From positions 27,595,001 to 27,659,000 of the forward strand of contig NC_091972.1 of assembly GCF_036711975.1 (NCBI RefSeq): 64,000 nt of DNA, given 5' to 3'. The notes under the pieces were generated by a model. That model saw nothing but the letters and a program-made list of their open reading frames with translations. It did no database searches and was not told where the DNA came from. A program made the translations under genes and the position numbers. The stretch is from Onthophagus taurus. Taxonomy: Eukaryota; Arthropoda; Insecta; Coleoptera; Scarabaeidae. Position 1 is the first letter of the stretch; every line of letters begins with the position of its first letter. Of the stretch, positions 57,120-60,360 are shown piece by piece.

Positions 57120-58121
57120 TTGACAAAGGCCTGACTTGGAAATCACACATTAGTTGCAACAATTGTAGTCATCCAGTGTCGGAAGACAATTCAATGTGGG
57201 ATCTACACGTCTGTACTAAGATGGTAGCTCACGGAGCCATAGTTTGGTGCTCAGCAACGAGTGGCCTGCTTGTTAATCACGGGTGTCATGAGATCGACAT
57301 CCACCATCGCGCTGGAGACTATGCTGAACGTGCTGCCCCTAGATATTTTTATCAAGGAGGTGGCCGCGGTGGCGGATAATAAGCAGGTTGTAAAAATGGG
57401 AAAAGTCTGGAGCGAACTCTGGAGTGAGGCTGTTTGTAAACAACCCTTCCTTGAAGCTCGCGCAGACTACATCACACCTACTTTCTTAAACAGACCACAC
57501 TTTGGCATTGAAACGATACCCCGGAGTAACTTAAGCACGGGCAAATCGCTGACCATCTACACTGATGGATCAAAGAAGGCTGGAGACTCCGGCGCCGGAA
57601 TTTTCTCGCACGATCTCCAGCTACACCTATCCACTTCGCAAGGGTCCTACTGCACGACTGCTCAGACCGAAATAACTGCTATAAATATAGCAACCAATGT
57701 GATTATCGACACCAAAACAGTTGGCAGAAACGTTGTAATCTGCACAGATAGCAAACAGGCTATGCTGGAGGTTGGTAGGCATCGAACTACATCATCGTTT
57801 GCGAAGTCCTGTCGGCAATCACTTGAAGAGGCTAACGTTTATAACAATGTTACGATAAAGTGGCGGAAAGGATATACCGGAAATAAGGGACACGATCATG
57901 CGGACAGGTTGGCGAAACGGGCGGCTAAGAAGTCACCGGTCTCCCCTGAACCGTTTGTACCTCTGACTTTCAATACAGCATCAAATATGGGATGAGACTG
58001 CAGTAGATGTTTTTGCAAAGAAAACTCTGCTCTACCCTGACCGGAAGAGATCTACTCAGTTCCTGAGAAAATCAAAAAGTGACTTGAGGCTCCTCACCCA
58101 CTTCCTGTCCGGACACTGCAG
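57120..58121 (+). pseudogene. LINE ORF2 C-terminal part with RNase H
   Basis: The sequence begins DKGLTWKSHI and, after a small deletion and shifts, GAIVWCSATSG and LACLLITG. An open frame of 245 codons (57261-57995) follows, containing VMRSTSTIALETMLNVLPLD and an RNase H domain: TIYTDGSKKAGDSGAGIFS (first Asp), AQTEITAINIATN (Glu), VVICTDSKQAML (Asp) and GNKGHDHADRLAKRAA (last Asp). It continues as DLRLLTHFLSGHC to 58121, where an unclassified element interrupts it. The match resumes at 60183 with the R-L-R-K-H codons. An RNase H after RT is typical of I, R1-like or LOA-type groups, so this is a different family from the Jockey-like LINE. Confidence 0.85.
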
Positions 58122-60182
58122 CGAGGGGTAAACCGCTAGTTCAAATTTTGTACACCTACTTCCCCTTTGACAAATAATTCCTTATACTTCCTACTTATAT
58201 TCCTAGTATTTTCCTGTACTTCCGTGTATTTCCTCACAATTCCTTATACTTCCCCGTACTTCCGTGTACTTCCCCGTAATTCCTTTTACATACTCGTACC
58301 TCATCTCCCTTCGGACGGCATATCCACGTGTGTATTTAAGTAAAACACCCAAATAAAAGTCAATAAAAAGTAACATATATTCTTTGGCAAATAAAAACAT
58401 TGAGTTTTTCTATATAAAAACAGAAAATAATAATACTGACAAAACAGTATTAAAGTTTTTTATAATTTTGTTTGAAAGCTTTGTATAATTTCTTTATTTC
58501 TACATCATCATGTCTGCTAATTTGAAATATGCCGTTACCAAGTAAAGTTTGTTTAGTACAGAAAAAAAGTCTGTTATAAACAGTTGATTATTGTCAATAT
58601 TGTCTCTTTTGCGTTTAGATCTTTCACTTCTTCCGTACTTTTCTAATTTCCATTTTGAAGAGCTAGTCTGGGGAGAATTATTACGAGTAACAATTTTTCG
58701 TGTAGGAACTCGTGTAAGGGTGTCAGTCGAGATTTCGGTCTTTGTTGGAGTTACACACTCGGTTACGCCGACTGATACTTCTGAGGAAACATTTTCTTTA
58801 TCGGTTTCCGAGGCGGTTTCATTAAAGTAAATATTTTCAATACTCTTCAGACATTCATGATGAGATGTGTCAATACGGTCAACAGGTGTTACGGAAATAT
58901 TTTCTAGTATAATAATCTTTTGTGAATTATTTTCAACTGAAGAACTTGCACGTGAAGAACACGGATTTGGGTTCAACGTAAAATAATCAGTAATTGATGT
59001 TTCCCTGCGTTTACTTTCAACAATAGTTGCCGGCGCATTAATTTGATCGTTCGTATGCGCAGTAATATGTTTACTTAAAAAATGTTTATGAATATTAGCA
59101 TATATCCATCTTGGTTGACAAGTGTCTTTTTTGGACACCTTTTGGATTTTGCAACTTTGACCACAAAAGCAAGTCACAGTGCAAGAAAAATGTTTATCTA
59201 ATCCTTTTTGAATTTTTAGGCTTATACCATTACATTTTGATTCAAATATTAACCATTGTTCCTGACTAACTTTTGTTTTAAGCCAGCACTTTAGAGCTTT
59301 TAATATAACGCACTTTTCTGTTTCCTGATCTGTAGCTGCAGTCTCACTTAATGGTTGTGCTGAGGGGGGTGGTAATGTCTGCTCAGAAATGTTTTCAGTT
59401 ATGTCGGTTTGCGTAGACTGAGTCGATATTTTTCTCTCGTATTTGGATTTATAAAATTTGGAAATTAAAACTATTTGTTTTTTCGTGCCAGATAGCAATT
59501 TAAATTGCTGCGGATTATTTTTAAAAATCCCGTAAAACAAATTTTTTTCTTCCAAAGTTAGTAATTTATGGTAGTCATTTCTAATAAATGCTTCTATTTT
59601 TTCTAGATCATTTTCGTCAATCGTACCATGCAGCACCTCATTATCAAATCCGCTAATAGTAAGAATTTCCTTAACATTTTCATTTAATTGAAATTGTAGA
59701 AAATTTTCGGCCTCTTGAAAACAGCGATAGCGATTTGCCGTCATCCTGGCGCCTAATACAAAACAATTTACGAGCGAATTTAGTACCATTGACTCTTCAC
59801 GATATGTTAATATAAATTTAAATTTTAATATGATACTCATTCAATCTTACCTTTGAATGAAAACGATGCTTTTACCAGTAACAATTCACACACCCTTTAT
59901 GAAACAGAAACTGCGCACCTAATACTAGATCTAGCTTGTTTATGGAACATCGTAACTTCGATCGTTAGATATCGTGTTTAATCGTGTTCGATCGTGTTCA
60001 ATATATCCCCAAATTTCCCTAAATAATTTCCCGTACTTCCCCAAACTTCCTCGATAATTCCCCGTAATTCCTTGTACTTCCCCGTAATTACTCGCATCTC
60101 CCCATAATTCCCCAGACTTCCCCATAATTCCTCCGCATTTCCCCTATTTTGTACACCTACTTCCCCAGCGGTTTACCCCTCG
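58122..60182. mobile_element. Unclassified 2.06-kb DNA element with intact gene
   Basis: The ends are 16-bp perfect inverted repeats CGAGGGGTAAACCGCT (58122-58137; inverted at 60167-60182), flanked by an 8-bp duplication CACTGCAG / CACTGCCG with one mismatch. The host LINE frame is continuous once the element is removed. Just inside each end the 20-mer TTTTGTACACCTACTTCCCC (about 58147 and 60147) appears in the same orientation, followed or preceded by arrays of short TTCC/GTACTTCCCC words. The single gene (minus strand) shows no hAT, P, Merlin or other transposase motif that I recognise. Confidence 0.85.
58500..59840 (-). CDS. Unrecognised protein of the 2.06-kb element (446 aa)
   Basis: This is an intact minus-strand frame covering two thirds of the element. 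Residues about 30-130 are helical in character (FLQFQLNENVKEILTISGFD, DLEKIEAFIRNDYHKLLTLE) and end in FKLLSGTKKQIVLISKFYKS. Residues about 175-260 hold a possible zinc-binding unit (CTVTCFCGQSCKI, then W-I-Y-A-N..H-x3-H: NIHKHFLSKH). The C-terminal part is Ser/Thr/Glu-rich with a basic patch (RSERSKRKRD). The N-terminal helical block resembles, loosely, a domain seen in other transposon proteins. No DDE, recombinase or nuclease motif is evident. Earlier in-frame Met codons (residues 18 and 33) are alternative starts. Confidence 0.7.
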   Translation of the reverse strand: MSIILKFKFILTYREESMVLNSLVNCFVLGARMTANRYRCFQEAENFLQFQLNENVKEILTISGFDNEVLHGTIDENDLEKIEAFIRNDYHKLLTLEEKNLFYGIFKNNPQQFKLLSGTKKQIVLISKFYKSKYERKISTQSTQTDITENISEQTLPPPSAQPLSETAATDQETEKCVILKALKCWLKTKVSQEQWLIFESKCNGISLKIQKGLDKHFSCTVTCFCGQSCKIQKVSKKDTCQPRWIYANIHKHFLSKHITAHTNDQINAPATIVESKRRETSITDYFTLNPNPCSSRASSSVENNSQKIIILENISVTPVDRIDTSHHECLKSIENIYFNETASETDKENVSSEVSVGVTECVTPTKTEISTDTLTRVPTRKIVTRNNSPQTSSSKWKLEKYGRSERSKRKRDNIDNNQLFITDFFSVLNKLYLVTAYFKLADMMM

Positions 60183-60360
60183 CACTGCCGGTTACGCAAG
60201 CACGTCAAGTTTACCGTTCTATTAACGTTCATTAAAAACTTGGGCTGGTTTGGACTAGGTGGGATAGAGCCATTGGAGATGAAAAATGGCAAGAGTATAT
60301 AAGATAGCATTAAAGCCTTTCCAGTACTACTTATGCTTTTTCCCGTATCTTCTTAAGATG
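60183..60360 (+). pseudogene. LINE ORF2 end, continuation after the inserted element
   Basis: The codons for R-L-R-K-H-V-K-F continue GHC from 58121, matching the C-terminal G-H-C..L-R-x-H pattern of RNase H-bearing LINEs. The expected Cys-rich end is not seen. The reading frame ends shortly after (KNLGWFGLGG). Confidence 0.65.

What the first reader, a model, noticed from the sequence alone, without database searches (positions are those of the whole stretch)
58122..60182. Unclassified 2.06-kb transposon with one intact, unrecognised gene
The boundaries are exact: 16-bp perfect inverted ends, an 8-bp near-perfect target duplication, and a host LINE reading frame that closes when the element is removed. 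The 446-codon gene is unbroken, while nearly every other element gene in the window is broken, so the insertion is recent or the gene is under selection. The protein shows none of the transposase signatures I know. An 8-bp duplication fits hAT, P, Merlin or Zisupton, but the ends and protein match none of them from memory. It may be a new superfamily, or a non-autonomous element carrying an accessory gene.
Basis: partly seen in the sequence, partly recalled or inferred. Interest (0 to 1): 0.8.

Follow-up and report, generated by a model that had tools for sequence, protein, structure and literature searches.

The report
Internally deleted P-type jumping gene
The 2.06-kb insert is a shortened, non-self-sufficient copy of a DNA transposon distantly related to the fruit fly's P element, and its open gene is the front part of that transposon's own enzyme rather than a new kind of gene.

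The parts
58114..58121 (.). left target duplication cactgcag
58122..58137 (+). left terminal inverted repeat CGAGGGGTAAACCGCT
   Evidence: the 21-mer starting here has 18 matches in the assembly at up to 2 mismatches, reversed control 0
58145..58165 (+). 21-bp direct repeat shared by both ends, left copy
   Evidence: (D4)
58175..58299 (+). left subterminal array of about 10-bp units (TAATTCCTTA/TACTTCCCCG type); inferred transposase-binding region
   Evidence: function inferred
58500..59840 (-). 446-codon open frame: N-terminal ~430 residues of a P-type transposase plus 16 residues read out of frame after the deletion; the conserved start is probably Met33 (59742-59744)
   Evidence: start choice inferred from copies and homologs
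59415..59729 (-). residues 38-142: helical domain, SAM-like in the model
59043..59327 (-). residues 172-266: zinc-finger-like domain, C224-x-C226...H253-x4-H258
   Evidence: counterparts in 9 of 9 homologs whose region aligns; the other homolog rows of the 22-row alignment lack the region
58602..58658 (-). residues 395-413: conserved basic stretch SKWKLEKYGRSERSKRKRD
58546..58551 (-). internal-deletion junction with short filler (GTTT); the catalytic core is missing here
60006..60144 (+). right subterminal array of about 10-bp units, same orientation as the left array
   Evidence: function inferred
60146..60166 (+). 21-bp direct repeat shared by both ends, right copy
   Evidence: D4
60167..60182 (-). 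right terminal inverted repeat
60183..60190 (.). right target duplication cactgccg (one probable later change)

Best explanation
The insert is an internal-deletion derivative of a P-superfamily cut-and-paste transposon. A longer parent lost its transposase core, probably by interrupted repair after excision (inferred from the filler bases at the junction). The ends and about 430 N-terminal codons remained. The short form then moved to new sites with 8-bp duplications (shown by shared junctions at three sites); since it encodes no catalytic domain, a full P-type transposase must have acted in trans (inferred; the source enzyme was not found). One insertion landed in a LINE-like sequence and now exists as five copies through local segmental duplication. 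The leftover frame is open because the copy is young. If translated, its SAM-like and zinc domains could bind the subterminal repeats and interfere with transposase as the Drosophila KP protein does; that step is inferred, about one chance in four.
Against: No copy found holds the whole triad, so a complete transposase of this exact family is not shown; the catalytic evidence comes from relatives at about 45-50% identity. Pfam matches to P models are sub-threshold for P0046 (15.4 against 23) and absent for P0055, P0061, P0069 and P0105; in an earlier scan 7 of 22 rows matched Tnp_P_element and 4 of 22 TNP-like_RNaseH_N, best E 1e-4 and 0.0066. No THAP domain was found. Which D is the second catalytic one (620 or 622) is inferred. 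Expression of the frame is not tested.
Confidence: 0.93

Rival explanations
1. The truncated protein is a selected, KP-like trans-repressor kept because it damps the parent transposon.
For: It keeps the putative DNA-binding and oligomerisation parts and drops catalysis, as KP does (review PMC7776569, passages). Four of seven copies are open, and in L025 the native C-terminal frame follows the junction.
Against: pN is about equal to pS: 1 synonymous and 3 nonsynonymous differences between W and L022, 2 and 10 between W and L026; other pairs fall on both sides of 1. Three of seven copies are broken. No expression data.
Confidence: 0.25
2. A new superfamily or an accessory-gene cargo element.
For: The stand-alone 446-aa query found no homolog and no Pfam family above its cutoff.
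Against: That search admits only proteins up to 1.75 times the query length (about 780 aa), so it left out the 837-1033-aa relatives found otherwise. Fold and Pfam evidence points to P.
Confidence: 0.02
3. A hAT element, since hAT also makes 8-bp duplications (recalled).
For: 8-bp duplications; Hermes is among the fold matches.
Confidence: 0.02

Closest known systems
Drosophila P element and its internally deleted KP derivative
   Same: P-transposase fold (on a homolog), 8-bp duplications, internally deleted copies that moved, a truncated N-terminal protein frame left behind.
   Different: Ends of 16 bp rather than 31 bp; no THAP match; C-x-C...H-x4-H zinc motif and a SAM-like domain instead of THAP and leucine zipper; 446 rather than 207 residues; repression untested.
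Zebrafish P-like THAP9 element
   Same: Short ends (13 bp), 8-bp duplications and multiple internally deleted copies, as described in PMC7776569 (passages).
   Different: It is a THAP9 gene; no THAP match was found in this lineage.
Galileo (P superfamily, Drosophila)
   Same: P superfamily with repeat-rich terminal regions (abstract starts in the listing only).
   Different: Galileo has very long inverted ends; here the inverted ends are 16 bp and the inner repeats are direct.

Membership tests
P superfamily | 8-bp target duplication | tested here: met
   15 of 16 places scored: 14 perfect and one 7/8; L016 could not be scored (left end lost)
P superfamily | terminal inverted repeats | tested here: met
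   16 bp perfect in the window copy; seen across copies, with the left one damaged in L026 and lost in L016
P superfamily | RNase H DDE transposase with helical insertion resembling P transposase | tested here: met
P superfamily | P-type helix-turn-helix (Pfam PF12017) | tested here: met
   met in relatives only: above cutoff in 3 of 8 scanned (P0079, P0100, P0103), sub-threshold in P0046 (15.4 against 23), no match in 4 of 8. Deleted from the window copy
P superfamily | GTP-binding insertion domain | not tested
   the helical insertion lies within the aligned range, but GTP contacts were not compared
Canonical THAP-bearing P group (P, THAP9, Galileo) | N-terminal THAP C2CH zinc domain | tested here: not met
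   no THAP match (window frame, E up to 10) or (8 homologs, E up to 1); ligand spacing C-x(1-2)-C...H-x(3-4)-H
KP-type repressor element | internal deletion leaving an open N-terminal frame with a putative DNA-binding part | tested here: met
   DNA binding itself is inferred
KP-type repressor element | represses transposition in trans | not testable with these tools
   needs an expression or excision assay
hAT | transposase fold nearest to hAT | tested here: not met

The most novel reading that the evidence does not exclude
A P-superfamily lineage that replaced THAP and leucine zipper with a SAM-like oligomerisation domain and a different zinc finger, and that independently produced KP-like truncated repressors. 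In this genome it has overrun its own source: several deletion lineages moved, and no complete transposase remains.
Probability: 0.2. Interest if true: 0.55.

Novelty: new member of a known kind. Interest (0 to 1): 0.3.

Why it matters
It settles an apparently unclassified transposon. It also shows a common trap: an internal deletion leaves an open gene with no transposase signature. If the lineage is confirmed, it gives an independent setting, outside Drosophila, for asking whether internally deleted P-type elements stop their parents, as proposed for Drosophila in PMC12393704 (abstract).

Full report
What is there. The element at 58122-60182 has perfect 16-bp inverted ends, a 7-of-8 direct duplication and a 446-codon open frame on the minus strand. 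Removing it and one duplication leaves one frame open across the join; that this is a LINE is read from the sequence. Inside the ends lie arrays of about 10-bp units in the same orientation, at 58175-58299 and 60006-60144, and a 21-bp direct repeat shared by both ends.

Other copies. A whole-assembly DNA search (291 Mb, 33 contigs, unnamed host; 28 of 28 candidates scored) gave 40 matching pieces, which by position make 20 copies, the window's included. The right-end 16-mer occurs 36 times exactly, and all 36 fall at ends of these 20 copies. Eight more have one mismatch: six belong to a sister family, one is the left end of L021 and one was not followed; the reversed control gave 1. Five copies (window, L023, L024, L025, L027) share their 1.5-kb flanks at 99.7-100% identity and are duplicates of one insertion. 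That leaves 16 places. Duplications could be scored at 15: 14 are perfect 8-bp duplications (counting the window site from L023-L025) and L014 is 7 of 8. L016 has lost its left end. L026 was scored after allowing for a damaged left inverted repeat.

The window copy is a deletion derivative. In longer copies the DNA to the left and right of element position 425/430 is separated by further DNA: 1.3-2 kb in L012-L014, more in L009 and L010, which carry nested insertions. The parental left side reads ...CCAAGTAAA|TTAATGG and the right side ...TGCGTC|GTTTAG; the derivative reads CCAAGTAAA-GTTY-GTTTAG. Seven copies of this form exist, at three separate sites with duplications cactgcag, ctattatt and ttataaac, so the short form itself moved. 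Four of the seven have an open frame (446, 446, 450, 463 aa) and three are broken.

What the gene is. In L009 the frame of the window gene runs on past the junction point into KSVTGLLKILCEISLKNTKRSKYKHTF, and L012 carries that block on into EDATRI, SSDGDTRLL and QDEVHIGTKLRNRLL. Residues 40-437 of the window frame align with P0088, an 837-aa protein that continues into the transposase region though it ends before the E block (E 2e-38, 26% identity). P0052 (1033 aa, with the E block) and P0046 (943 aa) agree. The last 16 residues are the parent's C-terminal codons read in another frame. The stand-alone search found nothing because proteins over 1.75 times the query length are not candidates there. 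The transposase region has 44 homologs in a first search and 477 with the alignment, of 7993 candidates scored, 120 listed. Named sources among these are insects: fireflies, other beetles, a sawfly, a wasp, an ant, thrips and an aphid (groups by recalled taxonomy).

Is there a source? A protein search of the assembly with P0001 (25 of 25 candidates scored) gave 19 matches. Nine belong to five copies of this family and end at P0001 residue 445 or earlier; the E is at 450 and the first D at 119. Nine belong to a sister family (L028-L033) and begin at residue 153 or later, past the first D. One, at C2:23774050, covers 272-528 and was not examined further. So none of the 19 spans both residues. 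With homolog P0069, copies L009, L010, L012 and L013 all stop at residue 461-462, just before its E block at 463, and resume at 924-929; L014 stops at 441 and resumes at 944. At the DNA level L009 and L010 share one junction, and L012 and L013 share the same junction with a 14-bp repeat added. Introns and candidate limits mean an intact copy is not strictly excluded.

Selection. Nei-Gojobori-type counts over up to 397 codons give, for W against L022, 1 synonymous and 3 nonsynonymous differences; against L026 2 and 10; against L012 2 and 17; against L010 5 and 11. pN/pS falls on both sides of 1 across pairs. The open frame is explained by youth. Power is low.

Mechanism. Shown: internal deletion, transposition of the deleted form, 8-bp duplications, duplication of the carrying segment. 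Inferred: movement in trans by a P-type transposase, deletion by interrupted repair, binding of the N-terminal domains to the subterminal arrays. Speculative: KP-like repression. Short P elements encoding repressors such as the 207-aa KP protein are described in PMC7776569 (passages); zygotic repression by KP in PMC4938643 (abstract and start of the introduction); displacement of full-length elements by deleted ones in PMC12393704 (abstract).

Verdict. A new family member of the P superfamily, in a non-THAP lineage whose relatives stand in public data as uncharacterised insect proteins. Not a new superfamily.

Noticed in passing
L010:2556-5409: A nested element inside a longer copy with CACAGTGG...CCACTGTG ends, a near-perfect 5-bp duplication (CGCTG/CGCTT) and a sub-threshold RAG1 match (E 9e-4) in one of its frames; looks like a Transib-type element (label recalled).
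   Followed up: partly
L028-L033: A sister P-type family with right ends AACGGTTTACCCCTCG. Its copies match the homologs past the first D only, and those read keep the block with the catalytic E; the zinc region is fused straight to the DGD block in L028, L029 and L031. L030 has an 8-bp duplication CATTACCA.
   Followed up: partly
L009:2188-4908: A 906-codon non-LTR retrotransposon-like frame nested inside a longer copy, on the opposite strand; the label is from reading the sequence.
   Followed up: no
L011:3273-4364: A 363-codon mariner-like transposase frame nested inside a longer copy; the label is from reading the sequence.
   Followed up: no
window:56622-61682 and copies at C7 27.51-27.83 Mb: Five near-identical copies of this stretch within about 320 kb, 42-134 kb apart: recent segmental duplications.
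   Followed up: partly
L023-L025, C-terminal codons: Small differences near the junction leave the native transposase C-terminus in frame in these copies (463-aa frame in L025); in L023 and L024 another stop breaks the frame.
   Followed up: no
G000:C2:23774050-23774832: A further P-type transposase fragment in the assembly, matching P0001 residues 272-528 with no stops (L040); its family and ends were not examined.
   Followed up: no
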